Below, in pieces: positions 23,602 through 51,500 of a DNA stretch of 58,675 bases. The stretch is from the NCBI GenBank assembly GCA_902787555.1, contig CADAGO010000013.1, forward strand, positions 1 to 58,675, read 5' to 3'. Source of the DNA: an uncultured Bacteroidales bacterium (GTDB lineage: Bacteria; Bacteroidota; Bacteroidia; Bacteroidales; Bacteroidaceae). Position 1 is the first letter of the stretch, and the number at the start of each line of letters is the position of its first letter. The notes beneath the pieces were generated by a model. That model saw only the letters and a program-made list of their open reading frames with translations, was not told the DNA's origin and made no database searches. The position numbers and the translations under genes were made by a program.

Positions 23602-23731
23602 AATAATCCATCAAAAATTAATCCCCCATTACCATTACTATTTCCTTCTTCTATTTTTTTGCAATGATATAGAAGTTGGCACAAATGTATCATCTTCTAT
23701 CTTGCAGCTTCACAGGGTTCGTAACATTGTT

Positions 23732-23785
23732 CCCCCTAATGGGAATTTTTGCAACCCCTAGGGGTAGCAATTTTTCCCTTAAGGG
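23732..23785. repeat. Three GC-capped palindromes at 21-bp spacing inside a 50-bp imperfect dyad
   Basis: CCCTAATGGG (23734-23743), ACCCCTAGGGGT (23754-23765, perfect) and CCCTTAAGGG (23776-23785, perfect) have centres 21 bp apart, about two helical turns. The intervening AT tracts (AATTTTTGCAA and TAGCAATTTTT) make the whole 50 bp roughly symmetric about 23759/23760. It lies 35 bp beyond the stop of the 853-residue gene and about 130 bp upstream of the HTCS promoter. It could be an operator array or the terminator region of the upstream gene; the perfect stems are too short for a typical terminator. Confidence 0.65.
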
Positions 23786-35653: not shown

Positions 35654-35685
35654 TTTGGCAGATATGTAGAAAAGTGTTATATTTG
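35654..35685 (+). promoter_or_regulatory. Promoter of mosaic gene A
   Basis: TTTGG at 35654-35658 (TTG 35655-35657) is 20 bp from TATATTTG (35678-35685). The leader to ATG 35781 is about 90 bases and AT-rich. Confidence 0.8.
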
Positions 35686-35780: not shown

Positions 35781-37307
35781 ATGAAAAAATTATTACTCAC
35801 AGCAATTATTGCTTTGATTGGTATGAGTGCTTGGGCAGCAAAGCCAGAAGCAGGTACCAAAGGTTATTTTTACAATCCTGCAGCAGGCAAGTTTATTGAC
35901 ACGAATGCCAAGTTGTCAGTTACAGAAGGAGAGCTATTTGAAGTTTATTTCAAGAGTTCTGACGCATCAGATCCTGCAACCGATTATGCAGATCGTGGAT
36001 TTGATGGAGGCTACTACATTAGATTTAAATCAACTAAAGGTGATTTGAGCCTTCAGTCACAACCTCTTTATAATGGTGGAGGCTATGCTCAGTTCATTGT
36101 GAAAGAAACAGAAAAAGGTTGGTTGATAACCCATCCATACCCAAATACTAGTGGTAATGTTCCTGGTTGGGTTAACGATAACTTAGATGAATATCAGGGT
36201 GCATATCTTCAGGTAGTAGATGGTGAATTGGTATTTGCTAAGGGCACAGAAAACGAAGGTGCTTATTGGCAGTTTGTTGATGAAGACACTTATAAGAAGA
36301 TTGCAGGTCCTACTTATCCAATTGCTTTGACTGGAGGCACAAATGGTATAGTTGTTGAATACACAGATGAACCTTATGCAGGGACATTCACTCCTGTTAA
36401 CGATTTGAGTAATGCATTCCAGCATAAACCATTTGATGTAAAAGAATTTGTAGCGTATGGCTATAAGTATATTATTCTCGATTTTGCAGAACCAGTAGCT
36501 GATGGATGGAACCTACATGCTTATGGCGTAGGAAATGAGCCTTTCTTTAGCTTAAAAGATATGACTCGATATGTTGTAGAAATGACTGATGCTGACATCA
36601 TAGAGGACTTCACTATCTTCAATTGGTTTGGATGCCGTACTCCTGTCAAAATTAAGGCTTGCTACTTCTCAAAGGATAAAGAGGGTATAGTAGAACCAGA
36701 ACCAGAGCCAGAACCTATACCTGCTGTATTCCCCGAATATGGTGCTCAAGGTTTCCTCTATAACCCAGAGAGTGGTTTGGTTGTTAATGCATCTGCAACA
36801 CTTGTAAGTAAAGCAGATATTGATAAAGAGGCAGACCTTCTTACTGTATGGCAGAAGGGGACAGAAGATTACAATGCTACAAGAGTTCGTATTGCAGCAG
36901 GTAAGAATGAAGAAGACGTATGGAAGTCATTGAGAGTTAAGGACGGTGAAGAAGGTGCTTACACAATTGACTTCATCAATGACGGATACAGCCGTTTGAC
37001 ATTGGAAACGGCCGAAGAAGGTAGCTATTACATCAAGAGCACATATAATACTGCAGGAGAGAGTAATCACCCAGGTTATATCAAAGCAAATGTTGAAGAC
37101 GGTACGTTGATTATTGCAACTGATAAGGATGAGTACTGTGTATGGAAGTTCTTGACAGAAGAAGAGTTTGATGCTCTCGCTACTAGCATCTTTGCAGCTA
37201 CTAAGAAGGCTCCTGTAAAGGCAATCTTCAACGTAGCTGGTCAGCAGGTGAAGACTCTCCAGAGGGGTCTCAACATCGTGGATGGTCAAAAGGTTTATGT
37301 GAAGTAA
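35781..37307 (+). CDS. Mosaic secreted protein A of the tandem family
   Basis: 508 residues; no enzyme motif. Signal peptide MKKLLLTAIIALIGMSAWA. YLYN module 1 (about 27-171: GYFYNPAAGKF, then IRFKST, YLQVVDGEL, AYWQFVDEDTY) is followed by a beta-sandwich-like domain (178-297), a Pro-Glu linker EPEPEPEP (305-313), YLYN module 2 (319-468) and the tail IFNVAGQ...RGLNIVDGQKVYVK (482-508). Residues 319-508 align without a break to the last 185 residues of protein D (45611-47455), with identical runs such as TVWQKGTE and VRIAAGKN. These features suggest a glycan-binding or adhesive surface protein. It opens the array of five; a 3' C-rich element and terminator follow. Confidence 0.8.
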   Translation: MKKLLLTAIIALIGMSAWAAKPEAGTKGYFYNPAAGKFIDTNAKLSVTEGELFEVYFKSSDASDPATDYADRGFDGGYYIRFKSTKGDLSLQSQPLYNGGGYAQFIVKETEKGWLITHPYPNTSGNVPGWVNDNLDEYQGAYLQVVDGELVFAKGTENEGAYWQFVDEDTYKKIAGPTYPIALTGGTNGIVVEYTDEPYAGTFTPVNDLSNAFQHKPFDVKEFVAYGYKYIILDFAEPVADGWNLHAYGVGNEPFFSLKDMTRYVVEMTDADIIEDFTIFNWFGCRTPVKIKACYFSKDKEGIVEPEPEPEPIPAVFPEYGAQGFLYNPESGLVVNASATLVSKADIDKEADLLTVWQKGTEDYNATRVRIAAGKNEEDVWKSLRVKDGEEGAYTIDFINDGYSRLTLETAEEGSYYIKSTYNTAGESNHPGYIKANVEDGTLIIATDKDEYCVWKFLTEEEFDALATSIFAATKKAPVKAIFNVAGQQVKTLQRGLNIVDGQKVYVK

Positions 37308-37313
37308 AAGCTC

Positions 37314-37344
37314 CCCTCCGACTCCCCCTCTATGGAGAGAGGTA
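37314..37344 (+). repeat. C-rich/G-rich 3' element after gene A (divergent copy)
   Basis: A CCCCTCCGACTCCCCCTC tract followed by GGAGAGAGG, 6 bases after the stop codon. It occupies the same place as the better conserved copies after genes C, D, E and the 226-residue gene, but the sequence has drifted. Confidence 0.55.
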
Positions 37345-37361
37345 AGAAAGTTACAATAAAG

Positions 37362-37387
37362 GTGCTCAGGCAACAATGCCTGAGCAC
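37362..37387 (+). terminator. Terminator of gene A
   Basis: GTGCTCAGGCA, loop ACAA, TGCCTGAGCAC: an 11-bp perfect stem followed by TTCTTCTTTT. Confidence 0.85.
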
Positions 37388-37479
37388 TTCTTCTTTTAAT
37401 CAAAAACAACGTTATTATATATATTATAAGGTATTGAAGCAGGATTTTGCATTTTTTTTTGTGATTTTTTTATAAATTG

Positions 37480-37511
37480 TTTGGTGGGTTTGTGAAAAAG
37501 TGTTATATTTG
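37480..37511 (+). promoter_or_regulatory. Promoter of mosaic gene B
   Basis: TTTGG (37480-37484), 20 bp, TATATTTG (37504-37511). The region between them (GTTTGTGAAAAAGTGT) closely matches that of gene C. The leader is about 85 bases. Confidence 0.8.
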
Positions 37512-37602
37512 CCCGTTGATAGAAGAAATGGTGTGCAGATGAACAGCTGATTGAAAAAACTTACTAAAATCACTTTATATTAACTTTTAAACAATTACCA
37601 TT

Positions 37603-40600
37603 ATGAGAAAAATCAGACTTTTACTCGTAGCAGTATTTGCGCTGGTGGGTATGAGTGCGTTCGCACAACTCCCAACAGACCAATCTATTGGTTATCTGTA
37701 CGATGCCGCTGCTAAGAAATTTATCAATGCTGAAGGTAAGGTTGGTGCTACTGGAATGCCATTCAAAGCCCTCAAGCAAGGAAGCTCTAAGGATTATACC
37801 ACTAAGGATGGTACTAATCGCACATTTACTTCTTATCGTTTTAAAACAACAGACGGAAGTAAGGGATTGGGAATTGATAACACGAATGGAACAACCGCTT
37901 CAACCAATGGAATCGTTACATCAACAGGAACTTATGGATATGGTGTGTTCGCAGTAGTTCCTGTCGGTGAAACAGGATTCCGCATCATGAGCACGTATAA
38001 TAGAGCAGACTTTAATGTTGATTATTTATACGACTATTGCTTAGGATATAAAGACGATGGTACTTTGTTCTGTTTCCCAGAAGCAGAAGCTCCAGTTTGG
38101 CAGTTTGTTGACGAAGAAACATATAAAACGACTGTAGCAGCTAATGCTATGCCAAACGCAAATGATGTTGGTTATCTGTATAACTTGGCAACAAAGCAGT
38201 TCATTTCTGCTAATGCTGTTATGGATGATAATGGTGTTGAATTTGTAATTGGGGAAAAGGTTGACTGCGGCGCTCATTTCGGTAGCGAAGGTAAATATGT
38301 TGAAGAAGCTGGTTACTCTTACTTCCGTTTCAAACTGAACGGAACATCAGACTACATGAGAATGGTAAATGAAGGTGTTACTTGTAAGAGCAGTGGTTAT
38401 CACAAGTGGGCAGCAATTGGTACAGAAAAAGGTCTGGTAATCCGTTGTATCTATGTTTCATCTCAGGTTGCATTTGCTCAGCAGGGTTACTATCTGACTC
38501 CTGATGCTGAAGGCAAGTTGGTTCTCCTTGAGGAGCCCACAGATGCTTCTTACTGGCAGTATATGTCAAAAGATGACTACGATGCACTTCATGAAGATGC
38601 AGCAGCTGCTGCAGAATTGTTAGCAAAGAAGCAGGCATTGAACTATGGTGACGATGCTACATTTGCAATCGTTAATCCTAGCTTCGATGCAGGAAATGCT
38701 GATGGTTGGACAGTTACTGCAAAGGGTACAGCACCTAAGTATGCGATTGTAGATGATGGCAAAGGTGGCAAGAATGCAGGTATGACTTGCTACAACAGCG
38801 CTGTTAAGATTGAGCAGACCATCACAGACCTGAAGCCTGGTATCTATTTACTGGAAGCACAGGCATTCGGACGTGCAGGTACAAACGCTGCAAACCTTCC
38901 TAAGTTCTACGCAGGAGAGGTTTTGGAAACTCCAGCTTATCTCTTTGCAAACGGTGTGAAGACACAGGCAATCAACATCTTCGACGGAGCTGTTGAGGAG
39001 AAGGGAGCAGGTAATTACACTGAAATTGAAGTCAATGGCGAAAAGAAGTATGTCCTCGATAACTCAAGCGCAGGTTCTTACGCTTTCGCTCAAGGAAAGT
39101 ATGCAATGGAGGTAATCGCTGAAGTTGGAGAAGACGGTAAACTGACAATTGGTTTCGAAAAGACTACAGATGGCGACACCGGTTATTCTGGTTGTGATAA
39201 CTTCCGTCTGACTTATATGTGCCCTGCTACTCAGTATCCTGGAGGCGTATATTATTTGTATAACAAAGAGGCAGGTAAGTTCCTGAGCCGTGGTGCAAAT
39301 TGGGGTACTCGTGCTACTGTAGCTACTCTTGGTATGCCAATTAGAGTTGCATTAACAGAGACTGGAATCAATCTGCTGTCATACGACTGGAGTGGTACAG
39401 GTCTTGGTGAGAATCTTTACACAGACAGACCATCAAATGAGTGGATGAATTTAACTGTTACTCAGTCTGCAAATGGTGTAAAACTCCAAAACGGTGGTAA
39501 CTATATGTTTAATGATAATGGTCTCATATCCATGGGCTCAACTGAAGACGAGTGGACATTTATGTCACCATACGATTATGAGAGATTCATTAAGAAGACG
39601 GTTGTTGATGGTAAAGCAAAAGCTTTGACAGATGCAGGTGTTGCAGATGCAGCTGCATTAGCTGAATATGCCGAAAAGGACGTTACAGAAACTTATCTTG
39701 CAGGAGCGACTTTGAATAATAAGGATGGTTGGACTTGGAGTGGATATCCAATTAATCCTCGTGGAGGTAATTATAATACTGGAGCAGGTATTCTTGAAGT
39801 ATTCCAAGGTGCAGGCACACTTACAAAGACAATCGAAGGTTTGAAGCCTGGTCTGTATAAATTCACAGTGAACGCATTCTATCGTGATGGCGGTAATCCA
39901 GAGTGCGAGGCTCGTGCCAACGCAGGTTTCGTAATGTCTACAGCAACCCTGAATGCAAATGGCAATTTCGTTCGTATTGCTGACTGGGCTTCTGATCATG
40001 TTGCTACTTGGAATCCAAACAGCATGAATGATGCAGCAACCCTCTTCAATGAAGGTAAGTATGTGAACGAAGTATTTGCGTATGTAGGTGAGGATGGTGT
40101 ACTGAATCTTTCACTCGAACAACCTAACTATATTGATGGTGGTTGGTTCATCTTCGGTAATGCAAAACTGACTTACTACACAGATGCTATTTCTGAGGAA
40201 GAAATTGCTGAACTGATTGCACAGATTCCAACAGATCCAATGAATGGAGAAATCAAGGCCAACCTTGAGGCTGCAAAGGAAGCTTTCGAGACAAATCCAA
40301 TCATTAAAACCTACAAAGCACTGTCTGCTTTGATTAAGGAAGCAAACACATCTGTTGAGCAGTACGCAGCTACAAAGGCTGCTTTGGATACTTATGCAGC
40401 AAAGGCAGCTCAGTTGGATAAGGACGGAAAGGCTGCTTATGACGTAGCTGACATCCAGACTGCATACACGGCCGGTACAGCAACTGCTGATTTGAGTGGT
40501 GATGTTTTGGCTACATATATCAAGGCCGTTAAGTCTCAGACCTCTGTTGGTGCAGACATGAGTGATGCAATTGTTAACCCAGGCTTCCAGGAGACTCCTG

Positions 40601-42063
40601 CAGGTAAGGGATGGACAATGGCTGCAAGCAACCAGAATCTCCGCGGTGGTGGCACAAATGGCAACTATTGCGGTGAGTCATACCACTCAGTATTTACACT
40701 CTCTCAGACTCTAACAGGTATGCCAGCTGGTACTTACTCATTGACCGCTCAATGTTTCTATCGCATCGATAATGGTATAGATGATATACCTGTTGTATTC
40801 GGAAACGATGATACAGCTCAATTCCCACAGGAAGGCTATCTGCCAGATCACGACGGAAGTGGATGGGAAAGCATGGGCGATGCCGCAGTAGAGTTTATCA
40901 ATGGTAACTATTATCTTGAAATTCCTGTTGCTTTCGTAGTAGGTGAGGACGGAGAGATTACACTTGGTGCAAAACTGGAAACCAGCACACAGCTCTGGTG
41001 TATTTGGGATAATTTCACGCTTACATATCAAGGAACAAGAACTGTTGATGAAATCAAGAAGGAAGCAGCGATACCAGCTTATTTGAAGGCACTTGCAGAC
41101 GCAAAGGAAGTTTTGCCTGAGACAATGGATCCAAAAACCCTTGTTAAGCTCAATAATACTATCAATACCTATGCTGAGAATAAGGTTCTTGTAGATGAAG
41201 CAACATTTGCAAGCGTTCAAGAAGCTACAGCTGCATTGATTGCTGCAACGAATGATGCTCATACTTCAGTCCGCAACGCACAAGCTCTCATGGGTATGTA
41301 TGAATTGATGGAGCAATACAACATAGTAACTCCAGAGGCTTACGATACTTACTATGCTATGTTCGAAAACTATAACAAGCAATACAAAGCAGGTACATTG
41401 ACTGAAGCTGTTGAGAGTCTGAATCCATATAGCTTACGTGGTGTACGTACAGATGTTAACTTTGACGACTATCTCCTCTCTGCTTGGACTGAGGATGGTG
41501 TTCAGTGTTCAAACTACGATCAGGGACTTATCATCAACTCATGGTCAACAGAAGGTTACAATGATGGTACTGGATTCAAGGTTCCATTCTTCGAGTACTG
41601 GACAAGTGATCCTAACACACTTGCTGCAAAAGAATTCGAAGCAACTGTGACAGATCTTCCTTCTGGTATTTACGAAGTTACAGCATGGGTACGTGTTCGT
41701 ACAACAAACGGAACAGATCCTGCTGATGCAGAAGGTGTTGCATTCCAAGTAAACGAAGACGACGAAGTTGATGTTACTAACGGTGAAGTTGTTGGTCCGT
41801 TCAACTTAACTCAGGTTAAAGAAGAAACGATTGTACAAGATGGCACATTGAAGGTGAAGTTCAATGTAGCTGAGGGCAATAACATCAGCTGGCTGTCATT
41901 CCAGAATGTGAAATACACCTTGTTAGAGGAAATAGCAACTGCTATCTCAGAAGTTGGCAACAAGGCTGCAGATAAGAGTGTATTCAACGTAGCTGGTCAG
42001 AAGTTGTCAGCTCCTGCTAAGGGTCTCAACATCATTGATGGTAAGAAGGTTTACGTGAAGTAA
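37603..42063 (+). CDS. Mosaic secreted protein B, the largest of the tandem family
   Basis: 1486 residues, signal peptide MRKIRLLLVAVFALVGM with SAFA cleavage. Modules in order: YLYN 1 (about 27-175), YLYN 2 (185-330), jelly-roll CBM-like 1 (351-540, NPSFDAGNADGWTV to YSGCDNFRLTY), YLYN-like 3 (546-665, YYLYNKEAGKFLSRGANWGTR), jelly-roll 2 (695-862), helical spacer (863-982), jelly-roll 3 (983-1147, ending TQLWCIWDNFTLTY), helical FIVAR-like spacer (1148-1280), jelly-roll 4 (1281-1447, ISWLSFQNVKY), and the tail (1459-1486, FNVAGQ...KGLNIIDGKKVYVK). Jelly-rolls ending in 'DNF-L-Y' resemble carbohydrate-binding modules. No catalytic residues are recognisable. Modules 1 and 3 recur in protein E, module 4 in protein C. 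Confidence 0.8.
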   Translation: MRKIRLLLVAVFALVGMSAFAQLPTDQSIGYLYDAAAKKFINAEGKVGATGMPFKALKQGSSKDYTTKDGTNRTFTSYRFKTTDGSKGLGIDNTNGTTASTNGIVTSTGTYGYGVFAVVPVGETGFRIMSTYNRADFNVDYLYDYCLGYKDDGTLFCFPEAEAPVWQFVDEETYKTTVAANAMPNANDVGYLYNLATKQFISANAVMDDNGVEFVIGEKVDCGAHFGSEGKYVEEAGYSYFRFKLNGTSDYMRMVNEGVTCKSSGYHKWAAIGTEKGLVIRCIYVSSQVAFAQQGYYLTPDAEGKLVLLEEPTDASYWQYMSKDDYDALHEDAAAAAELLAKKQALNYGDDATFAIVNPSFDAGNADGWTVTAKGTAPKYAIVDDGKGGKNAGMTCYNSAVKIEQTITDLKPGIYLLEAQAFGRAGTNAANLPKFYAGEVLETPAYLFANGVKTQAINIFDGAVEEKGAGNYTEIEVNGEKKYVLDNSSAGSYAFAQGKYAMEVIAEVGEDGKLTIGFEKTTDGDTGYSGCDNFRLTYMCPATQYPGGVYYLYNKEAGKFLSRGANWGTRATVATLGMPIRVALTETGINLLSYDWSGTGLGENLYTDRPSNEWMNLTVTQSANGVKLQNGGNYMFNDNGLISMGSTEDEWTFMSPYDYERFIKKTVVDGKAKALTDAGVADAAALAEYAEKDVTETYLAGATLNNKDGWTWSGYPINPRGGNYNTGAGILEVFQGAGTLTKTIEGLKPGLYKFTVNAFYRDGGNPECEARANAGFVMSTATLNANGNFVRIADWASDHVATWNPNSMNDAATLFNEGKYVNEVFAYVGEDGVLNLSLEQPNYIDGGWFIFGNAKLTYYTDAISEEEIAELIAQIPTDPMNGEIKANLEAAKEAFETNPIIKTYKALSALIKEANTSVEQYAATKAALDTYAAKAAQLDKDGKAAYDVADIQTAYTAGTATADLSGDVLATYIKAVKSQTSVGADMSDAIVNPGFQETPAGKGWTMAASNQNLRGGGTNGNYCGESYHSVFTLSQTLTGMPAGTYSLTAQCFYRIDNGIDDIPVVFGNDDTAQFPQEGYLPDHDGSGWESMGDAAVEFINGNYYLEIPVAFVVGEDGEITLGAKLETSTQLWCIWDNFTLTYQGTRTVDEIKKEAAIPAYLKALADAKEVLPETMDPKTLVKLNNTINTYAENKVLVDEATFASVQEATAALIAATNDAHTSVRNAQALMGMYELMEQYNIVTPEAYDTYYAMFENYNKQYKAGTLTEAVESLNPYSLRGVRTDVNFDDYLLSAWTEDGVQCSNYDQGLIINSWSTEGYNDGTGFKVPFFEYWTSDPNTLAAKEFEATVTDLPSGIYEVTAWVRVRTTNGTDPADAEGVAFQVNEDDEVDVTNGEVVGPFNLTQVKEETIVQDGTLKVKFNVAEGNNISWLSFQNVKYTLLEEIATAISEVGNKAADKSVFNVAGQKLSAPAKGLNIIDGKKVYVK

Positions 42064-42070
42064 ACAGAAC

Positions 42071-42097
42071 CTCCCTCTTATCCCTCCCAAGGAGGGA
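42071..42097 (+). repeat. C-rich/G-rich 3' element after gene B
   Basis: CCTCCCTC then TCCCTCC-CAA-GGAGGGA (42081-42097), a 7-bp perfect hairpin with a 3-base loop, 20 bp downstream of the stop codon. Confidence 0.65.
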
Positions 42098-42106
42098 AGA
42101 TAATAA

Positions 42107-42134
42107 AGGTGCTTGGACAGAAGTCTGAGCACCT
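42107..42134 (+). terminator. Terminator of gene B
   Basis: AGGTGCTTGGAC, loop AGAA, GTCTGAGCACCT: a 12-bp stem with two G-U pairs, followed by a run of seven T. Confidence 0.87.
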
Positions 42135-42210
42135 TTTTTTTGTTTAAACAACACTTTTTTTATTATAATAAGGTGAAAAGTGCCTTTTTTTGTGATTTTT
42201 TGGTTAAATG

Positions 42211-42242
42211 TTTGGTGGTTCTGTGAAAAAGTATTATATTTG
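42211..42242 (+). promoter_or_regulatory. Promoter of mosaic gene C
   Basis: TTTGG (42211-42215), 20 bp, TATATTTG (42235-42242), with the spacer nearly identical to that of gene B. The leader is about 64 bases. Confidence 0.82.
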
Positions 42243-42311
42243 CCACCTGTAAACTGAAACCAATATTAATTAACTAATAAATTTATTTATTAACTCTAAA
42301 CAATTCAAAAC

Positions 42312-45305
42312 ATGAGAAAAATCAGATTTTTACTCGTTGCGCTATTTGCGCTGATTGGTATGAGAGCATTTGCTGCTCTGCCAGAGGCTGATCAAAAAGG
42401 TTTTCTTTATAACCTTGGATCTGGCCAATTCATCACTGCAGATGCCACATTAGGTGAAACTGGAGTGGAATTTACTATTGAAATCAAGGAGAAAGACGCT
42501 AATGCTACTCCTTCAGTTGAAGGCGCAAAGTTCATGCGTTTCAAGACAGGTTCAAACTACCTGACATTCTACACAGAACCAGCTGCCATGAGTACATATT
42601 ATGGCCAGTTGATCGTAAAGTCAACTGAAAAGGGTCTGCTCATTACTCATCCTTATCCAAACGACCAAGGTCCTTCATGGATTACAGCAGGTTCGTATCT
42701 TCAGGTTGTCGACGGTGCACTTGCTTGTACTGCTTTAGACGAAGCAAACGAAGGTGCTTACTGGTTCTTCGGCACAGCAGATGAGTTGGCAGAATTCTTA
42801 GCACAGCAGCAGCAAGGTGAAGAAGAAACTGGCGACCAAGCTATTATGAATGCTGCAGTAAAGGCAGCTTACGATGCAGCTCTTGCTAGTTATAACGCTA
42901 ATCCAAATGAGGAGACAGAAGCGGCATTAGTAAAAGCAAAGAAAGCTGCTACTGCAAGTATCATTGCTTACAAGGGCGTTCGCTCATCTATCGAAATGCA
43001 CAAGCAGCTTCTTTCTGGTGATGATGTTGAAGATTTCATGGACGCTGTAGCTGATATCATTGAAGACCTCAACGCTGGTACGCTCGAAGGTAACGGTATC
43101 GCTGAAATGGCAGAAATTGCAGGTATTTATGCAGATCTTACAGGTGGTGAAGGTGCAACTGAAATAGCAGTATTCCCATATTCAACTGAATGTACAGTTG
43201 GTGAGAACTACGTTCCTGGTGATAATCATGGAATTACTATCGACTGGGATGAAATCGCAGCAGAACTTGGTGTTGAGAAGGATGCTTTGAAGATTTATGC
43301 AATGATGCCTGACGGAACACTCGATGAAACATACGGAAGAGGTTCTGCCGGTACAGACGGATGGCGTGACGCTGAAGGCAACTGGGCAGGTTGGGACTCT
43401 GCAGACAATCTGTTCTATGTTCAGTTCACTGGCCTTAACCTTGATGGTGTAGGTTGTATGCGTACAGCAGAACCAACATCTTACACTGCTTTATTCAAGA
43501 TTGTCAATGCTGATGATACAGAAGGCAACTATGTAGTTCTGTCTATTACACTTAATGTGAATGAGAAGGTAATTGACTTTGCAAGCATTGAAGATTTGAC
43601 AGTTGCTAGCACATTGAAGAAAGTGGTAACAGTGCCAATAGGTGCTTCTTATGTTGCAGCAGTAGATGTTGATGCTGACATGGCTGGTATCCTCGCAGCG
43701 CTTGGCGTTTCTTCAATCGACGATGTTAGGATCTTTGCTGTTCAGTCTGACGGTACTCTCGACGATTCTTACAAACTTGGTTCTTCAGACGGTTGGCGTA
43801 ATGCTGCCGGTGATTGGGCTGGTTGGGGCGATGCAACTTCACAGTTCTATGTAAAGTCTGACTTCTCTCGCGCAGCAGGTCAGTTGTACGAAATCGGTTG
43901 TCACCCATTGCATAGTGGTGCACATATGGACGATGTGGTTAACTACACAGCTAAGTATGCATTCGTTGCAGGTAATTCTGAGGCAAACAAGGCCGTTATC
44001 TATAATGTAGTTGTTGCAGTTGCTCCCGAAGCAGCAGAATTGGATGAAACAGGTGCTACAGTTCAGTACTTCTACAACGTAGAGGCTAAAGGCTTCCTCC
44101 TCGGTGCTAACGAATGGCAGACTCGTGCATCAATTGGTAGCAAGGGCTTTGACATGCACTTCGAGGCTAATGGCGACACTTACAAACTTTGCGCAATCAA
44201 CAACACAGGTGAGGGTAGACCAGGTAACGACCTTGACTGCTCTGCACCAGGTGAGATTTGGGTAGACGGTGCTGGCCGTGGCGGTGCTGGCATGTGGACA
44301 TTCACAGTAAATGCTGATAAGACCTTCACTATTGCTAACAATAATGTACCTGGACTCCTTTCTGTAGTAGGTGACAACCCTCGTCTCTTTATGTCAGAAG
44401 ATCCAGCAGCTATGAGCACATGGATTGCAGTTTCTGCTGAAACTTATAGTGCATTTGCAAACAAGGCTCAGTTGGCAGAAGAGGCTGCTACACTTGCAAA
44501 TATCAAGAGCCTTATCGAAAGCACGAACATCTATACACAGGATGCTTATGATAAGTACTATCAAATGTATGCTGACGCAATCGCTAAGAATGCTGCAGGT
44601 GAGGTTATAGGTGGTAGCCTTGACAATCCATATAGAGTACATGATTGGCGTCAAGCTAATAGTTATGACGACTTCCTCCTCTCTGCATGGACATACAATG
44701 GCACTCAGTGTTCAGACTTCGCAACTTCTCTCTACATCAATACATGGTCAGTAGAAGCAGATGGTAAGGAAGGCGCATCTCCAATGCACGTTCCGTTCTA
44801 CGAGTACTGGACAGGTGACGATAATTCACTTGGCGTAGCTACTCTCGAAGGAACTGTTACTGATCTCGAACCAGGTAACTATACCGTTCAGGCAGTTGTA
44901 CGTGTACGTGTCAAGAACAATAATACAGAAGACGCTCATGGTATCACGCTTTCTGCCAATGGTAGCAACCCAATCGAAGTTGCTAATGGTAGAGCTTGTG
45001 CCGACGGTGACCAATTCCGCTGGAACGTTTATTTCGTAAATGCAGTTGTTGGTGCAGATGGCATCCTCAAGATTGACTTCAACGTAGAAGCAGACAACAA
45101 CATCAGCTGGTTGTCATTCAAGGACGTGAAGTATTCTAAGCAGCAAGGAATGACTCCAATCATCATTACTCAGGATGCAACAGCAATCAGCGAAGTTGAA
45201 GCAACCTCAGCTGCAAAGACTATCTTCAATGCAGCAGGACAGCGCATCAATACGCTCCAGAGAGGTCTTAATATCGTTGATGGTAAAAAGGTATTGGTTA
45301 AGTAA
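42312..45305 (+). CDS. Mosaic secreted protein C of the tandem family
   Basis: 997 residues, signal peptide MRKIRFLLVALFALIGM. Modules: YLYN 1 (24-155; KGFLYNLGSGQFI), helical region (165-290), two DUF4859-like modules (about 290-425 and 425-575; DGWRDAEGNWAGW and DGWRNAAGDWAGWGDA with FYVK/FYVQ strands), a YFYN module (578-710; shared with D residues 35-170, including WVDGAGRGGAGMWT), a short helical part (715-770), a jelly-roll CBM-like module (780-945; shared with the end of B) and the tail (970-997; IFNAAGQ...RGLNIVDGKKVLVK). The DUF4859-like repeats are found in no other member of the array; the 853-residue HExxH protein has a similar one at its N-terminus. Function unknown; an outer-surface glycan binder is the likeliest reading. 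Confidence 0.8.
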   Translation: MRKIRFLLVALFALIGMRAFAALPEADQKGFLYNLGSGQFITADATLGETGVEFTIEIKEKDANATPSVEGAKFMRFKTGSNYLTFYTEPAAMSTYYGQLIVKSTEKGLLITHPYPNDQGPSWITAGSYLQVVDGALACTALDEANEGAYWFFGTADELAEFLAQQQQGEEETGDQAIMNAAVKAAYDAALASYNANPNEETEAALVKAKKAATASIIAYKGVRSSIEMHKQLLSGDDVEDFMDAVADIIEDLNAGTLEGNGIAEMAEIAGIYADLTGGEGATEIAVFPYSTECTVGENYVPGDNHGITIDWDEIAAELGVEKDALKIYAMMPDGTLDETYGRGSAGTDGWRDAEGNWAGWDSADNLFYVQFTGLNLDGVGCMRTAEPTSYTALFKIVNADDTEGNYVVLSITLNVNEKVIDFASIEDLTVASTLKKVVTVPIGASYVAAVDVDADMAGILAALGVSSIDDVRIFAVQSDGTLDDSYKLGSSDGWRNAAGDWAGWGDATSQFYVKSDFSRAAGQLYEIGCHPLHSGAHMDDVVNYTAKYAFVAGNSEANKAVIYNVVVAVAPEAAELDETGATVQYFYNVEAKGFLLGANEWQTRASIGSKGFDMHFEANGDTYKLCAINNTGEGRPGNDLDCSAPGEIWVDGAGRGGAGMWTFTVNADKTFTIANNNVPGLLSVVGDNPRLFMSEDPAAMSTWIAVSAETYSAFANKAQLAEEAATLANIKSLIESTNIYTQDAYDKYYQMYADAIAKNAAGEVIGGSLDNPYRVHDWRQANSYDDFLLSAWTYNGTQCSDFATSLYINTWSVEADGKEGASPMHVPFYEYWTGDDNSLGVATLEGTVTDLEPGNYTVQAVVRVRVKNNNTEDAHGITLSANGSNPIEVANGRACADGDQFRWNVYFVNAVVGADGILKIDFNVEADNNISWLSFKDVKYSKQQGMTPIIITQDATAISEVEATSAAKTIFNAAGQRINTLQRGLNIVDGKKVLVK

Positions 45306-45310
45306 AGACC

Positions 45311-45346
45311 TATAACCCCTCCCTAACCCTCCCCCAAGGAGAGGGA
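45311..45346 (+). repeat. C-rich/G-rich 3' element after gene C
   Basis: Two CCCTCC tracts followed by CCAAGGAGAGGG. The GGAGAGGG can pair with an upstream CCCTCC tract. The same sequence is found after D and E and, inverted, after the 226-residue gene. Confidence 0.75.
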
Positions 45347-45366
45347 ACTCTGGAGAATATATAGAT

Positions 45367-45394
45367 AGGTGCTCGGACGCAAGTTCGAGCACCT
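45367..45394 (+). terminator. Terminator of gene C
   Basis: AGGTGCTCGGAC, GNRA tetraloop GCAA, GTTCGAGCACCT: a 12-bp stem with one G-U pair, followed by TGTTTTG. Confidence 0.87.
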
Positions 45395-45470
45395 TGTTTT
45401 GTCCTTTCAAGAGCGAAACATTATTGTTATAAGGTGAATATAGTTTTTTTTGCATTTTTCCTCTTAAAAG

Positions 45471-45502
45471 TTTGGTAGTTAAAAATAAAATTGTTAACTT
45501 TG
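45471..45502 (+). promoter_or_regulatory. Promoter of mosaic gene D
   Basis: TTTGG (45471-45475), 20 bp, TAACTTTG (45495-45502). The leader is about 100 bases, rich in A and T, ending TTTTAAACAATAACGAAC before the ATG. Confidence 0.8.
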
Positions 45503-45610
45503 GAGCGTATTTTTATTAAAGTACCTAAATACCATATCAATTGATGTAATCATTAAATATAGATACTTTATTTATTTACTTTTTTATTAACATTTTAAAC
45601 AATAACGAAC

Positions 45611-47455
45611 ATGAGAAAATTTAGACTTTTACTTGTTGCATTTTTCGCAATGGTTGGTATGAGTGCTTTTGCAATGGACAAGCCTGTTCCTAAAGCTTCA
45701 GCACTTGCTACCGATGGAACAACAGCTCAGTATTTCTACAATGTAGATGCTGGCGGTTTCTTGATTGGTGCCAATAATTATGGAACACGTGCTTCTATCG
45801 ACCCGGACAAAGGTTATCTTTGCCGTTTTGAGGCTAATGGTGAAACTTTCAAATTGGCAGACAAAATAGGTAATAATTGGAATGATCTTGACTGCCAGAA
45901 TGTTGATCAAATTTGGGTTGACGGTACAGGTCGTGGTGGTGCTGGTAAATGGACTTACAAACTAAATGAGGATGGTTCATTCACAATCAGCAATACTAAC
46001 GTAGCAGGTTTCCTTTCAGTAGTCCCCTCAAAGAACGACACTCGTCTTTATATGTCAGGAGAAGCTGAGGCTCAGAGCACTTGGATAGCTGTTTCAGAAG
46101 AAGACTATGCTGCTTGGAAGGAATCATTTACAGAAATCGTAGAGTATGATAATACTATCGATAAAAAGTTCACAAGTATAGCAGAACTTGATGGCCAGTT
46201 ATTCTCTATCTTTAATGAAGCAGAAGAAAAGGCAATCTTCAACAGAGACAATCAAAACCTTGCTTATGAGTCATTCGCTAATGCTGTTAAGGGAACTTCA
46301 TATTTATTCAAGCTTGAAAGTTTGGCAGATAATGCGGATGAGGAAGTAAGAAGTTGCTACACACTTCAAGTTGTAAAAGCAGATGGTAGCGATATCGGAC
46401 TTTGGGGAAGTAGTAAAATCTATCTCAACTCTGGCACATGTGCAGAAGGAGGTTTTAATGGTTGCTTCGTTCTTGGCAATGGTGATAAGTTTGGTACAGA
46501 TTTAAAATATGGCGGTATCTGGGAAATTGAATATGAAGAAGGTAAGGGCTTTGCCCTGAAGAACAAGGCCCATGGCGGTTATTTCGTTGGCGTAAATCCT
46601 GGTCCTACTGGTAGTGACCCTGTATATTGGACATTTGGAAAGTTTACTGTTAATTCAAGTTCTTTCATTATTCCTGTAGGTTCAACAGCTTTGGACGCTT
46701 ACAAGAAGGCACTTGCTGATGCTCAGGCTGTAGATAAGACCACTATGTTTGCCGATGATCGTGCTGCATTGGAAAATGCTTTGGACAAATATGCTTATGC
46801 TAAGGTTATCAACGAATCTGCAACAGCAGAATCTATAGCAGCAGCTACTGAGGCTCTTATAGCAGCAACTAATCCTGCACCAAAGGTATTCCCACAATTT
46901 AATGCGCAGGGATATCTCTTCAATCTGGCAAGTGGTTTGATTATTAATAGCAATGCCGAACTGAAGGATAAGGTTAACGTAGATAAAGAGAAAGACCTCT
47001 TTACTGTATGGCAGAAGGGAACAGAAGCTTATAATGCAGCAAAAGTTCGTATCGCTGCAGGAAAGAATACTGATGGAACATGGGCATCATTGAGAATCAA
47101 TGCTGATGGTGATATCGTATGCTTTGATGAAAATTACAGTAGATGGGATGTAGAAGTTGCTGATGGTGGTAGCTATTATATCAAGAGCACCTATACCAAT
47201 GAAGCTAATAGCAATAGACCTGGTTACCTGAGAGCTAATACAGAAACAGGTAAGCTGGAAACTGTTGCCACAGCTGATGAATATTGTATGTGGCAGTTCT
47301 TGTCATGGGAAGAGTATGACGCTCTCACTACTAGCATCGCTTCAGTAGTGAAGAAGGCTCCTGCAAAGACTATCTTCAATGCAGCAGGACAGCGCATCAA
47401 TACGCTCCAGAAGGGTCTTAACATCGTTGACGGTAAGAAGGTATTGGTTAAGTAA
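45611..47455 (+). CDS. Mosaic secreted protein D of the tandem family
   Basis: 614 residues, signal peptide MRKFRLLLVAFFAMVGM. Modules: YFYN (about 35-170; YFYNVDAGGFLIGANNYGTR, then IWVDGTGRGGAGKWTY, close to C 578-710), a domain of unknown type (175-350; GGIWEIEYEEGKGFALKNK and GGYFVGVNPGP), a FIVAR-like helical spacer (358-422; close to B near 1150-1210), YLYN 2 (430-575; close to A 319-468) and the tail (587-614, IFNAAGQ...KGLNIVDGKKVLVK). The last 31 codons and 94 bases of non-coding sequence after the gene are nearly identical to those of gene C. The protein is thus joined from segments also used by A, B and C. Confidence 0.8.
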   Translation: MRKFRLLLVAFFAMVGMSAFAMDKPVPKASALATDGTTAQYFYNVDAGGFLIGANNYGTRASIDPDKGYLCRFEANGETFKLADKIGNNWNDLDCQNVDQIWVDGTGRGGAGKWTYKLNEDGSFTISNTNVAGFLSVVPSKNDTRLYMSGEAEAQSTWIAVSEEDYAAWKESFTEIVEYDNTIDKKFTSIAELDGQLFSIFNEAEEKAIFNRDNQNLAYESFANAVKGTSYLFKLESLADNADEEVRSCYTLQVVKADGSDIGLWGSSKIYLNSGTCAEGGFNGCFVLGNGDKFGTDLKYGGIWEIEYEEGKGFALKNKAHGGYFVGVNPGPTGSDPVYWTFGKFTVNSSSFIIPVGSTALDAYKKALADAQAVDKTTMFADDRAALENALDKYAYAKVINESATAESIAAATEALIAATNPAPKVFPQFNAQGYLFNLASGLIINSNAELKDKVNVDKEKDLFTVWQKGTEAYNAAKVRIAAGKNTDGTWASLRINADGDIVCFDENYSRWDVEVADGGSYYIKSTYTNEANSNRPGYLRANTETGKLETVATADEYCMWQFLSWEEYDALTTSIASVVKKAPAKTIFNAAGQRINTLQKGLNIVDGKKVLVK

Positions 47456-47460
47456 TGACC

Positions 47461-47496
47461 TATAACCCCTCCCTAACCCTCCCCCAAGGAGAGGGA
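47461..47496 (+). repeat. C-rich/G-rich 3' element after gene D
   Basis: Identical over its length to the copy after gene C (45311-45346). Confidence 0.77.
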
Positions 47497-47516
47497 ACTC
47501 TGGAGAATATATAGAT

Positions 47517-47544
47517 AGGTGCTCGGACGCAAGTTCGAGCACCT
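47517..47544 (+). terminator. Terminator of gene D
   Basis: Identical to the gene C terminator at 45367-45394: a 12-bp stem, GCAA loop, then TGTTTTTTG. Confidence 0.87.
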
Positions 47545-47603
47545 TGTTTTTTGTATGATTAATATATAAATAAGGTGTAAAAGAAACGATTTTTCAAAAA
47601 AAA

Positions 47604-47635
47604 TTTGGTAGTTAGGTAAATAATTACTACCTTTG
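47604..47635 (+). promoter_or_regulatory. Promoter of mosaic gene E
   Basis: TTTGG (47604-47608), 20 bp, TACCTTTG (47628-47635). The leader is about 93 bases. Confidence 0.8.
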
Positions 47636-47733
47636 GACCAAACTTCTCACAGAAGTTCCAAAAAGAAACCATATCAATCATTTATAATCTTATTATTTAA
47701 CTTTTAGTATTAACAATTTAAACATTAACAAAC

Positions 47734-50700
47734 ATGAGAAAAATTACTCTTTTACTCGTTGCTTTGTTTGCCGCTGTGGGTTGTGCATTTGCTGCTCTTC
47801 CTGCACTTAATGATGTTGGGTATCTTTACAACCCATCAACAGGCAAATTTGTTAGCCAATCTGCTACAGTTACGGAATTGGGCGACCAGTTCACGATAGC
47901 AGACGTAAAGGCATGTGGTGACAGCTTTGGAAGCGATGACGCTTCGATCTCAGAGGCTGGCTATACTTACATCCGTTTCCAAGTAACTGCAACTGGTGGT
48001 TACATGCGTATGACCAATGCAGGTGTTGTTTGTTCAGGTAGCGGTTATCACAAATGGGCTGTAATGGAAACAGAAAAAGGTTTGGTAATCCGTTGTATCT
48101 ACACATCAACCCAAAGCAATAATGCACTTGATCCAGCTGCTCATCAAGGTTACTATGTAACTCCTGATGCTGACGGTAAATTGACATTGGTTGAGACCCC
48201 TACCGAGGCATCATACTGGCAGTTTATGGATGAAGCAGGTTATCAGGCAATTGCTGCTGAAATCATCGCTGCAAAAGAGGCTGAAGAAGCTCAAGCAACT
48301 AAGGATGCTCTCGCTGCTCTCAACGGAGGCGAGGGTCCAAAGGCTGGGGATGAGCTATTGGCTGCACTTTTCCCAAATGCAGGCTTTGACGCAAGCAATA
48401 ATGCTGATGGTTGGACAGTTACAACGAAAGGTGGTAACAACCCAAGTTACAAGGTTGAAAACGGCAACTGCGGTATGACTAAGTATCAAGGAACCATCAA
48501 GATGGAAAAAACGATCAAGGGACTTCCTGCAGGCTGGTACACTTTGAAGGCTCAGGCATTTGCACGTAAAGGCAATAACGCCTCAAACATTGAGAAGTAT
48601 AACGCAGGTGAGGAACTCGAAGTTTCAGCATATATCTTTGCAAACGATGTTCAGAAACAGGCAAAGAATATCCTCGAAGGTGCTATTGCTGAAAAGGGAG
48701 CTGGTACCTACTCAGATTTCGTTGTAGGTGGTGAGACCAAGTATGTTCTCAACAACTCTAACTCTGGTTCATACGTATTCAGCTTAGGTGAATATGCAGT
48801 AGAACTCATCGTTTATGTTGCAGAAGGCGAAGCTTTGACATTCGGCTACAACAAACCAACTGACGATACTGATGACTATTGTGGTTGCGATAACTTCCGT
48901 TTGATTTACGAAGGTACTGCTATGCCACAGACATTTGCAGATGGTAAGTACTATCTCTACAATGTGGCATCAGGTAAATACTGGGGTGCATTTAACAACT
49001 GGGGTACAAAGGCCTCATTAGTAGAACATCCAGAATACATAACCCTTCACTACAAAGAGAATGGCTATCAGATGGAAACACAGGTAAATAATGGTGGTGC
49101 TCAATACTACTTCAATGGTGACTTCATGGACAATGGAAGTCCTAAGAGCCTCTTCATCGTTCCATTCGGAAAGTACTATAAGATCTATGCATCTGATGCT
49201 GTATATGGCTATGATGGTACATCTACCGTTCTTGGAACCCAAGCAGAAGGAGATGCTGCTGCATGGCAAATCTTCACAGAAGATGATATGAAGGCTCAAC
49301 TTGCCAAGGCTACCGCTAAGGAACCTGTTGATGCAACTTTCCTGATTCTTAATCCTAACTTTGGCCGCAATAATCGATGGGGTGGAAGTTTGTCAACTAA
49401 TAATAATCAAGTAAAGAATGCCGACCTTGGTTCTGCATGGTCGTTTGAGGCTGGAAACAAAGATGTAAATGGTGATGCAACAAACTATTGTGTAGAGTCA
49501 TACCATACAGTATTCGCCCTCTCTCAAACTATCTCTGGCGCACCTAAGGGTACTTACACTCTGACAGCTCAGGGATTCTATCGTCAGGATGGTTCAGACA
49601 ATGACAATCTCCCAGTATTCTTCGCTAATGACAAGAATGCTACATTCCCATTGAAGACAGGTACAGAAAACTCTATGAGTGATGCATCTAAATCATTCAC
49701 AAATGGTTTGTACACTATCGAACCTATTATCTTTGAGGTTGGAGATGACGGCACAATCACGCTTGGTGCTAAGCTGGAGAACAACACAAGCCTCTGGTGT
49801 ATCTGGGATAACTTCGTACTGAAATACTACGGACCTGATGCTACAGAACTTGATGTGAAGGCAGCTCAGGCTATTGAAGATTACCAGAAGGCTCTTGCAG
49901 AAGCACAGAAAGTAGACTTGAATGCAAAGATGAACGTTTCTTTGAAGAGTCAATTTGAAACTAGTCTTGATACTTATGCAGAAGACAAGGTTCTTACTAC
50001 AGATGCCACCAAGGAATCAATTGAGCAGGCAACAGCTATTCTGACCCAGATGACTGAAACCGTTAAGAGCAACATCGCAGATTATGCCGCAACCGCAAAG
50101 GCTCTCGAAACGTATGGTGCAAAAGCTCTAGAACTGGATGCACAAGGCCAGGCAACGTATGACGTAGCTGATATTGAAGCTGTATATAACGACTGTACAA
50201 TGGAATCTGATAAATCAGAAGATGTATTAGCAGCATTTGAGACAGCAGTTAAGGCTCAAGGGGTTGGTGCTGATATGACTGGTGCTGTTAGAAATGCCGA
50301 TTGTACAGCAGCAAACAATGCATATTGGACTATTGAAGGCGGAAATACCTTCCACACAAATACTTGGTCTACTGAAAATGACGAATCAGGATTGAAGGTT
50401 CCATTCATTGAAGATTGGGTAGGCGGTGGCAAAACTCTTGCAGACGCAACAATCACACACGTAACAATTGAAGGTCTCCCAGCAGGTAAATATTCAGTAT
50501 CAGGTTTCATCCGCGCATTTGCAGAGGATCATGCAGACGTAACTCCTACAGGTGCTTGCATCTTTGCTAATGGTGTTGATGGTGATGACATTTCAACTGG
50601 TACAACTGCTGTTTTCAACAGTAAGTCAGGAGAAGTATATGGAACATATACTGTTAAGTGCGAAGTAGGCGACGATGGTCTGCTCACCTTCGGTATAAAG

Positions 50701-50907
50701 GTTAAGGATGCTAATGATTTCTTCGATTGGATTGCATTCAAAAACTTCACCGTTATATACGAAGACTTACCAACTGCAATTACAGAAGTTGCTGGTAAGA
50801 CGGCAATTGCCAATAACAACGCTATCTTCAACATAGCAGGTCAACAGATGGACGGCCTCCAGAAGGGTATCAATATCGTAGATGGTCAAAAGGTTTTTGT
50901 GAAGTAA
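47734..50907 (+). CDS. Mosaic secreted protein E of the tandem family
   Basis: 1057 residues, signal peptide MRKITLLLVALFAAVGCAFA; the Cys in VGCAFA might form a lipobox-like site but AFA cleavage is equally good. Modules: YLYN 1 (25-185; VGYLYNPSTGKF, close to B 185-330), jelly-roll CBM-like 1 (205-400; close to B 351-540, ending CGCDNFRLIY), YLYN 2 (400-520; KYYLYNVASGKYWGAFNNWGT), jelly-roll 2 (530-705; close to B 983-1147, ending SLWCIWDNFVLKYY), helical spacers (705-845), jelly-roll 3 (845-1010; DWIAFKNFTVIY) and the tail (1030-1057, IFNIAGQ...KGINIVDGQKVFVK). The order largely parallels B, so the two probably descend from one gene or exchanged blocks. Its 3' end faces the convergent 226-residue gene. 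Confidence 0.8.
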   Translation: MRKITLLLVALFAAVGCAFAALPALNDVGYLYNPSTGKFVSQSATVTELGDQFTIADVKACGDSFGSDDASISEAGYTYIRFQVTATGGYMRMTNAGVVCSGSGYHKWAVMETEKGLVIRCIYTSTQSNNALDPAAHQGYYVTPDADGKLTLVETPTEASYWQFMDEAGYQAIAAEIIAAKEAEEAQATKDALAALNGGEGPKAGDELLAALFPNAGFDASNNADGWTVTTKGGNNPSYKVENGNCGMTKYQGTIKMEKTIKGLPAGWYTLKAQAFARKGNNASNIEKYNAGEELEVSAYIFANDVQKQAKNILEGAIAEKGAGTYSDFVVGGETKYVLNNSNSGSYVFSLGEYAVELIVYVAEGEALTFGYNKPTDDTDDYCGCDNFRLIYEGTAMPQTFADGKYYLYNVASGKYWGAFNNWGTKASLVEHPEYITLHYKENGYQMETQVNNGGAQYYFNGDFMDNGSPKSLFIVPFGKYYKIYASDAVYGYDGTSTVLGTQAEGDAAAWQIFTEDDMKAQLAKATAKEPVDATFLILNPNFGRNNRWGGSLSTNNNQVKNADLGSAWSFEAGNKDVNGDATNYCVESYHTVFALSQTISGAPKGTYTLTAQGFYRQDGSDNDNLPVFFANDKNATFPLKTGTENSMSDASKSFTNGLYTIEPIIFEVGDDGTITLGAKLENNTSLWCIWDNFVLKYYGPDATELDVKAAQAIEDYQKALAEAQKVDLNAKMNVSLKSQFETSLDTYAEDKVLTTDATKESIEQATAILTQMTETVKSNIADYAATAKALETYGAKALELDAQGQATYDVADIEAVYNDCTMESDKSEDVLAAFETAVKAQGVGADMTGAVRNADCTAANNAYWTIEGGNTFHTNTWSTENDESGLKVPFIEDWVGGGKTLADATITHVTIEGLPAGKYSVSGFIRAFAEDHADVTPTGACIFANGVDGDDISTGTTAVFNSKSGEVYGTYTVKCEVGDDGLLTFGIKVKDANDFFDWIAFKNFTVIYEDLPTAITEVAGKTAIANNNAIFNIAGQQMDGLQKGINIVDGQKVFVK

Positions 50908-50913
50908 CAGACC

Positions 50914-50950
50914 ATAACCCCTCCCTAACCCTCCCCCAAGGAGAGGGAAC
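50914..50950 (+). repeat. C-rich/G-rich 3' element after gene E
   Basis: Two CCCTCC tracts and CCAAGGAGAGGG as in the C and D copies, followed by ACTTAGGAGAAT. The version after the convergent 226-residue gene is an inverted near-copy. Confidence 0.75.
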
Positions 50951-50971
50951 TTAGGAGAATGATATAGATAA

Positions 50972-50997
50972 GTGCTCAGGCAGCAATGCCTGGGCAT
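50972..50997 (+). terminator. Terminator of gene E
   Basis: GTGCTCAGGCA, loop GCAA, TGCCTGGGCAT: a stem with G-U pairs, followed by TTTTTTG. Confidence 0.85.
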
Positions 50998-51037
50998 TTT
51001 TTGTGCTTTACTGTAGATATTTTGTACGACTGTACTC

Positions 51038-51301: not shown

Positions 51302-51414
51302 TGATAATTGTACACTGATTTCTTGACTGAAATATTGTTTCTAAATGCTCTTCCAATTTTTTTGCGGACACCAATTATAACCAATAACCTTTATTCCCAA
51401 GGTGGAAATAAAAA

Positions 51415-51440
51415 ATGCCCAGGCATCACTGCCTGAGCAC
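51415..51440 (-). terminator. Terminator of the 226-residue gene
   Basis: On the minus strand: GTGCTCAGGCA, GNRA loop GTGA, TGCCTGGGCAT, then TTTTTATT. Nearly the mirror of the gene E terminator across the intergenic region. Confidence 0.83.
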
Positions 51441-51460
51441 TTTATATTATTCTCCTAAGT

Positions 51461-51500
51461 ACCCTCTCCTTGGGGGAGGGTTAGGGAGGGGTTATGGTCT
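51461..51500 (-). repeat. C-rich/G-rich 3' element after the 226-residue gene
   Basis: Minus-strand copy: after the stop come two CCCTCC tracts, CCAAGGAGAGGG and TACTTAGGAGAAT, nearly the same as after gene E, so the two form an inverted pair. Confidence 0.75.

What the first reader, a model, noticed from the sequence alone, without database searches (positions are those of the whole stretch)
35781..50907. Array of five mosaic secreted genes built from a shared set of modules
Genes A to E (508, 1486, 997, 614, 1057 residues) lie in tandem and contain no recognised enzyme motif. They reuse the same parts in different order: A's last 190 residues match D's last 185; D's first module matches C 578-710; B's final jelly-roll matches C 780-945; B's jelly-rolls 1 and 3 match E's 1 and 2; helical spacers recur in B, D and E. 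This looks like a repertoire of surface glycan-binding or adhesive proteins generated by block exchange within one locus. If so, it would be a diversification system like those of other variable surface-protein loci, but built from CBM-like parts. No recombinase is visible nearby, so homologous recombination between modules is the likely route.
Basis: partly seen in the sequence, partly recalled or inferred. Interest (0 to 1): 0.78.

Follow-up and report, generated by a model that had tools for sequence, protein, structure and literature searches.

The report
Recombining mosaic lectin-like protein array
A gut bacterium carries five neighbouring genes for secreted, probably sugar-binding proteins whose building blocks have been swapped between genes and between related species, which suggests that these bacteria share and reshuffle a pool of surface lectins.

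Summary
The five genes and their module matches are real. Two module families dominate, by profile: 11 beta-trefoil and 8 CBM-type sandwich copies. The proteins end in a tail like the short type IX secretion signal, and each gene has its own promoter-like element and terminator-like stem. Module resemblances among A-E are mostly old (22-57% identity); only the C/D 3' ends look fresh (51- and 94-bp exact repeats).

The stronger evidence is comparative. In two related species the same site holds A-B-C-X-Y or A-Z-C-X beside the same right flank, 88% and 78% identical in DNA to the window. Yet gene B matches one species exactly over 1847 and 897 bp, and gene X is 95% identical between those two species. 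Genes A and C are mosaics; three of four tested trefoil slots reject slot orthology. Recombination, including recent exchange between species, is supported.

Not shown: exchange within a species, a dedicated diversification machine, glycan binding, or breakpoints at module borders (tested, not significant). All genomes are draft metagenome assemblies. Nearest known case: gingipain/HagA adhesin shuffling in Porphyromonas. New variant of a known kind.

The parts
35654..35685 (+). promoter-like element of A (TTTGG-N19-TAnnTTTG)
   Evidence: six matches in the window, 0.44 expected; five of the six are one per gene A-E. The pattern was chosen after seeing the upstream alignment
35781..37307 (+). 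gene A, 508 aa: leader, trefoil, middle domain (weak CBM96 match in the G010 copy, under cut-off), trefoil, tail
35829..36296 (+). A trefoil module 1
   Evidence: by profile
36720..37169 (+). A trefoil module 2
37360..37389 (+). terminator-like stem after A
37480..37511 (+). promoter-like element of B
37603..42063 (+). gene B, 1486 aa: leader, trefoil, trefoil, sandwich, trefoil, sandwich, spacer, sandwich, spacer, sandwich, tail
37619..39465 (+). 1847 bp identical to G010 gene B (right flank 88% identical)
39698..40594 (+). 897 bp identical to G010 gene B
42105..42136 (+). terminator-like stem after B
42211..42242 (+). promoter-like element of C
42312..45305 (+). gene C, 997 aa: leader, trefoil, spacer, two DUF4859 stretches, trefoil, spacer, sandwich, tail
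42576..42757 (+). 182 bp identical to G010 inside C trefoil 1; downstream of it C is 65-88% identical in 200-bp bins
44031..44450 (+). C trefoil module 2, nearer to G006 than to G010 in identity, against the order of the flanks
   Evidence: not significant in the tree test (AU p 0.16)
45211..45400 (+). C 3' end (tail, 3' UTR, terminator) repeated at the D 3' end: exact runs of 51 and 94 bp
45471..45502 (+). promoter-like element of D
45611..47455 (+). gene D, 614 aa: leader, trefoil, unassigned module shared with G006 gene Z, spacer, trefoil, tail
47361..47550 (+). D 3' end, repeat partner of 45211-45400
47604..47635 (+). promoter-like element of E
47734..50907 (+). gene E, 1057 aa: trefoil, sandwich, trefoil, sandwich, helical spacer, sandwich, tail; its two halves match two separate genes (Y and X) in G010
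48340..48918 (+). E sandwich module 1, carbohydrate-binding-module fold
50970..50999 (+). terminator-like stem after E

Best explanation
A-E are five separately transcribed genes for cell-surface or released proteins carried by the type IX secretion system. They are strings of beta-trefoil (lectin-fold) and CBM-type sandwich modules joined by spacers, and probably bind plant, host or bacterial glycans in the ruminant gut. The genes share a standard 5' end (promoter-like element, leader) and 3' end (secretion tail, terminator-like stem) around a changeable middle. Ordinary homologous recombination, after uptake of DNA from related species or between paralogues, replaces whole middles or blocks, so each species holds a different assortment at the same site. 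Shown here: anatomy, predicted fold of some modules, mosaic genes, recent transfer of B and X between species (if the assemblies are right). Inferred: separate transcription, T9SS export of these proteins, glycan binding, RecA-type route, selection for diversity.
For: Same site, same right flank, different content in three species: A B C D E; A B C X Y; A Z C X. Flank DNA identity 88.0% (W-G010), 78.1% (W-G006), 78.7% (G010-G006); X is 95.1% over 2021 bp between G010 and G006. Exact runs W-G010 of 1847 and 897 bp in B; longest run outside the array 98 bp; 300-bp bins at 99% or more: 8 of 26 matched inside (49 examined), 0 of 82 matched outside (94 examined). dS: B 0.061 against SecDF 0.393 and DapDH 0.70; X 0.116 against SecDF 0.753. 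Mosaic tests on A and C p<=1e-4 (protein) and p<=2e-4 (DNA). Trefoils in three of four slots tested reject slot orthology: AU p 0.0017, 1.1e-11, 0.0007. E matches Y (63% over 399 aa) plus X (40% over 687 aa); G016 has Y-like, C-like and X-like parts in one 1943-aa gene. Tails fit the short CTD; SprA and PorU present. CBM and trefoil folds.
Against: The genomes whose record titles I saw are metagenome assemblies, one per species; the source of the window is unknown, so a shared-sample assembly artefact in the B tract cannot be excluded (less likely for X, found in MAGs of two projects by name). Breakpoints not significantly near module borders. Fourth trefoil slot (C second) is monophyletic, and joining window with G010 inside it is not rejected, p 0.16. 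Of five flank genes tested at DNA level two also show uneven support, more weakly (SecDF p 0.005, rhomboid p 2e-4); of four at protein level one has p 0.037. Mean pLDDT of the models only 63 and 65; the trefoil of A and the third sandwich of E are of moderate to low confidence.
Confidence: 0.7

Rival explanations
1. Ancient paralogy plus fast divergence: an old tandem family whose members drift apart, with no exchange beyond rare old duplications.
For: Within-array module identities are mostly 22-57% in protein; the modules are spread over the family, composite profile in 118 of 301 genomes.
Against: Order of relatedness flips along A and C; identical tracts of 1847 and 897 bp in 88% genomes; X at dS 0.116 against 0.753.
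Confidence: 0.1
2. Assembly artefact: reads of co-occurring species merged over the conserved parts, making false mosaics and false identical tracts.
For: The titled relatives are draft MAGs; the paper that I take to be the source of the RGIG genomes reports co-assembly (passages of PMC8199421); identical repeats could not be resolved by automated assembly in the gingipain and hagA genes of P. gingivalis (PMC5266723 section 20).
Against: X is shared by a MAG named RUG13039 and one named RGIG6563, which by name come from two projects; the three arrays lie inside contigs of 59, 111 and 213 kb with continuous flanks; no bin at 99% or more in 82 matched bins outside the array.
Confidence: 0.12
3. 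A dedicated variation machine (site-specific inversion, shufflon, retroelement) rearranges the array within one lineage.
For: Gene and block content differ at one site; the left flank is inverted between G010 and G006; a 3' end repeat occurs inverted across E and its convergent neighbour.
Against: No Pfam match to a recombinase or reverse transcriptase in 35 of 41 listed window ORFs; the six not scanned are five antisense frames and 10766-11326, by eye ribosome recycling factor. Each gene has its own promoter-like element in the same orientation; the recent exchange seen is between species.
Confidence: 0.06

Closest known systems
Porphyromonas gingivalis RgpA/Kgp/HagA cleaved-adhesin domain rearrangement and allelic exchange (PMC5266723; abstract, outline and section 20 seen)
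   Same: Secreted adhesins of a Bacteroidales with a conserved C-terminal secretion domain; adhesin modules reused in several genes; combinatorial order; variants spread against the strain phylogeny; recombination as route
   Different: There most adhesin strings are tied to proteases (HagA is not) and variation is among strains of one species, modularity also noted in P. gulae; here no enzyme domain was found, the genes form a five-gene array of trefoil plus CBM-type modules, and exchange is between species 12-22% apart in flank DNA
Prevotella intermedia T9SS cargo with short C-terminal signals (PMC11969387; passages seen)
   Same: Tail of about 40-55 aa; GxN-Ile as in one sub-group there; basic end; Ile at +2 after the cleavage point
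   Different: No array or shuffling in the passages seen
Multi-modular T9SS-linked cellulases of rumen Bacteroidetes, Candidatus Paraporphyromonas (PMC5831590; search listings only)
   Same: Rumen Bacteroidetes, T9SS, multi-modular
   Different: Catalytic enzymes; here no enzyme domain was found
Ricin-B-type and other beta-trefoil lectins; CBM61, CBM16, CBM4, CBM22 folds
   Same: Predicted fold of the two module types
   Different: No match over cut-off to Pfam lectin or CBM families; binding untested

Membership tests
T9SS cargo with short CTD | C-terminal tail of about 40-55 aa with conserved Gly motif, GxN/GxY followed by Ile, basic C-terminal residue, Ile at +2 of the cleavage point | tested here: met
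   Five of five tails read by eye against the motifs in PMC11969387: T/AI (B, C, E) or T/SI (A, D), FNxAGQ, GxNI, K at the end; no profile of that paper was run
T9SS cargo with short CTD | T9SS translocon and sortase in the genome | tested here: met
   SprA_N in 15 of 17 genus genomes, 0 of 14 control genomes; PorU over cut-off in 15 of 17, 0 of 14 controls over cut-off and 2 under it; own genome has both; PorV not searched
T9SS cargo with short CTD | Export and tail cleavage of these proteins | not testable with these tools
   needs proteomics
Beta-trefoil lectin | Beta-trefoil fold | tested here: met
Beta-trefoil lectin | Carbohydrate binding | not testable with these tools
   no assay; fold does not show function
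Carbohydrate-binding module (beta-sandwich) | CBM-type beta-sandwich fold | tested here: met
Carbohydrate-binding module (beta-sandwich) | Sequence membership of a CBM family in Pfam | tested here: not met
   no CBM family over cut-off in the five proteins or five relatives; best CBM96 E 0.0017 under cut-off in G010 gene A
P. gingivalis-type combinatorial adhesin exchange | Module variants incongruent with the genome phylogeny | tested here: met
   between species; genome phylogeny taken from flank identity only
P. gingivalis-type combinatorial adhesin exchange | Variation among strains of one species | not testable with these tools
   one genome per species in the collections used; metagenome scans capped at zero
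P. gingivalis-type combinatorial adhesin exchange | Cleaved-adhesin or DUF2436 domains | tested here: not met
   no such Pfam match up to E 1
Shufflon, invertible locus or diversity-generating retroelement | Recombinase or reverse transcriptase at the locus | tested here: not met
   35 of 41 listed window ORFs scanned, none

The most novel reading that the evidence does not exclude
A lectin cassette pool shared by co-resident species: genes with standard ends (promoter and leader; secretion tail and terminator) and exchangeable trefoil/CBM middles, swapped whole or by module between Bacteroidaceae species of the ruminant gut, so that the glycan-binding repertoire is a property of the community more than of one lineage.
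Probability: 0.35. Interest if true: 0.78.

Novelty: new variant of a known kind. Interest (0 to 1): 0.62.

Why it matters
If right, a surface-lectin locus of uncultured ruminant-gut Bacteroidaceae evolves by cassette and module exchange across species that differ by 12-22% in flank DNA. That would make attachment specificity to fibre, mucus, hosts or phages horizontally tradable, and give a natural set of module swaps for testing which module sets which glycan specificity. It also puts a predicted fold on two widespread module families that Pfam and NCBIfam left without a name here.

Tried and rejected
Tried: Pfam and NCBIfam on A-E: no assignment over cut-off beyond DUF4859 in C; DUF5013 touches one sandwich of the G016 gene under cut-off. 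PDB sequence search: composite and sandwich profiles to an endo-galactanase, 9fli, E 4.5e-7 and 5.6e-7 over two weak stretches; C profile, one hit at E 0.22; trefoil profile only weak hits, best E 0.005; one sandwich alone none. Breakpoints against module borders: mean distance 42 aa against 50 expected, p 0.36, 6 breakpoints. Looked for near-identical DNA copies of the array and of X plus Y in 399 family genomes, two first-look candidates scored in each: no listed match over 90% beyond own, G010 and G006. Scan of genome contigs for named relatives gave 4 loci, three of them with the contig lengths of G006:C2, G010:C1 and G016:C17. Literature: nine searches; no listed title or abstract start describes this array; that is no proof of absence. 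Only the VIA second look was run on the models, no plain Foldseek.

Rejected: simple ancient paralogy as the whole story; a site-specific recombinase at the locus. Dropped rows: of the overlapping module sets I used T2 and J and left out T1 and J3, which largely repeat them. Tail count outside the array is by eye from the table. Segment borders depend on a penalty that I chose.

Full report
OBSERVATION. Genes A-E exist as described and the module matches hold. The window is contig C13 of a 2.69-Mb, 82% complete genome. Relatives in the same genus bear the titles uncultured Bacteroidales RUG13039, Bacteroidaceae RGIG6563 (sheep reticulum) and RGIG4776 (roe deer reticulum); their contig lengths equal those of G006:C2, G010:C1 and G016:C17, so I take them as the same records.

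EXPRESSION UNITS. The pattern TTTGG-N18..24-TAnnTTTG (Bacteroidales promoter form, recalled; chosen after the alignment) occurs six times in the window, 0.44 expected; five are one per gene A-E, all 32 bases long. Terminator-like stems follow A, B, C, D and E, though the number of such stems in the region is not above the shuffled mean (13 against 11.6).

SECRETION. The tails match the short T9SS signal of P. intermedia in motif order. SprA_N is in 15 of 17 genus genomes and the PorU sortase over cut-off in 15 of 17, own genome in both. By eye about 30 other places in the genome share the tail.

SITE COMPARISON. DapDH, the second gene after E, was found in 14 of 17 genus genomes. Array members sit next to it in four: own, G010, G006 and G003 (cut by the contig end; one Y-like gene, then about 6 kb of other genes); in the other ten none was seen in the 3.3-19.3 kb fetched on the array's side. 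Contents: window A B C D E; G010 A B C X Y; G006 A Z C X. E matches Y (63% over 399 aa) plus X (40% over 687 aa) in one gene. In G016, at another place, one 1943-aa gene holds Y-like, C-like and X-like parts.

RECENT EXCHANGE. Right-flank DNA identity: 88.0, 78.1 and 78.7%. B: exact runs of 1847 and 897 bp with G010, plus 182 bp in C; longest run elsewhere in window 15001-58675 outside the array, 98 bp. Of 94 outside bins of 300 bp, 82 matched and none reached 99% (maximum 97.7%); of 49 inside bins, 26 matched and 8 did. X: 95.1% over 2021 bp between G010 and G006; exact identity starts at the start codon and the last long exact run ends about 100 bp before the stop; left flank of the same pair 72-80%. 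Synonymous divergence: B 0.061 against SecDF 0.393 and DapDH 0.70; X 0.116 against SecDF 0.753. So B and X look recently transferred, not merely conserved.

MOSAICS. On window C, residues 4-276 go with G010 (141 of 151 informative sites), 336-386 with G006 (18 of 18), 596-729 with G006 (36 of 40), 740-990 with G010 (44 of 64), with undecided stretches between; on window A, 166-466 goes with G006 (129 of 133). Permutation p<=1e-4 for both; four flank proteins 0.61, 0.44, 0.037, 0.42. At DNA level A and C p<=2e-4 (statistic 38.1 and 96.4, largest of 5000 shuffles 22.1 and 36.0); five flank genes 0.005, 0.37, 0.24, 2e-4, 0.15 (rhomboid 13.3 against 12.9), so the flanks are not free of heterogeneity, but it is weaker. 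Trefoil tree: G006 gene A starts with a C-type trefoil (75% to window C; support 100/98), G006 gene C with an E/B-type one (61% to window E; 97/96), G010 gene A ends with a B-like one (91/93, not starred). AU tests reject slot orthology for A1 (0.0017), C1 (1.1e-11) and A2 (0.0007); C2 is monophyletic, and within it window+G010 is not rejected (0.16). I had seen the tree before naming the slots, though slots are the natural prior groups.

WITHIN THE ARRAY. The C and D 3' ends share exact runs of 51 and 94 bp over tail and terminator; three further exact repeats of 20 bp or more are 38, 38 and 23 bp. This is a sign of conversion or duplication between paralogues. Other module pairs show only old similarity.

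MECHANISM. Shared ends and changeable middle, no recombinase match in 35 scanned window proteins, and tracts that start at or within 20 bp of a start codon (B at 37619, X at its start codon) suggest homologous recombination through the conserved ends. This last step is inference. The test of breakpoints against module borders was negative.

SPREAD. The composite profile A2 hits 118 of 301 family genomes (at most three candidates scored per genome). In 399 family genomes no listed DNA match over 90% to the array, or to X and Y, beyond own, G010 and G006.

LIMITS. MAGs, one per species, window source unknown. I identify RUG genomes with the cattle study PMC6785717 (passages) and RGIG genomes with PMC8199421 (passages) by their names; the passages seen do not name RUG13039 or RGIG6563.

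VERDICT. A real, recombining array of lectin-like, probably T9SS-exported proteins; kin to gingipain adhesin shuffling but enzyme-free, cassette-like and cross-species.

Noticed in passing
G010:C1 left of the array (L041 1-13326) against G006:C2 (L044): The left flank is inverted between G010 and G006 at 72-80% identity, so the array lies near an inversion border.
   Followed up: no
window 45312-45349, 47462-47499, 50914-50951: A 38-bp repeat (CCCCTCCC...GGAGAGGG) follows C, D and E exactly; its core also occurs near 51462 in the convergent neighbour's 3' region.
   Followed up: partly
window 23727-23785: A different short intergenic repeat with many hits across the G006 genome.
   Followed up: no
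window 50824-51002 and 51410-51584: The 3' end of E and that of the convergent 226-aa gene are 89% identical in inverted orientation.
   Followed up: no
window 41-1024, 23820-26381 (-), 51501-52181 (-): Three further window genes without a Pfam match carry the same secretion tail.
   Followed up: partly
L045 (G016:C17), 1943-aa gene: A single gene joining Y-like, C-like and X-like parts, at another genomic place.
   Followed up: partly
L082 (G003:C272): At the same site G003 has one Y-like gene and then about 6 kb of other genes, by eye two duplicated pairs among them, before the flank.
   Followed up: no
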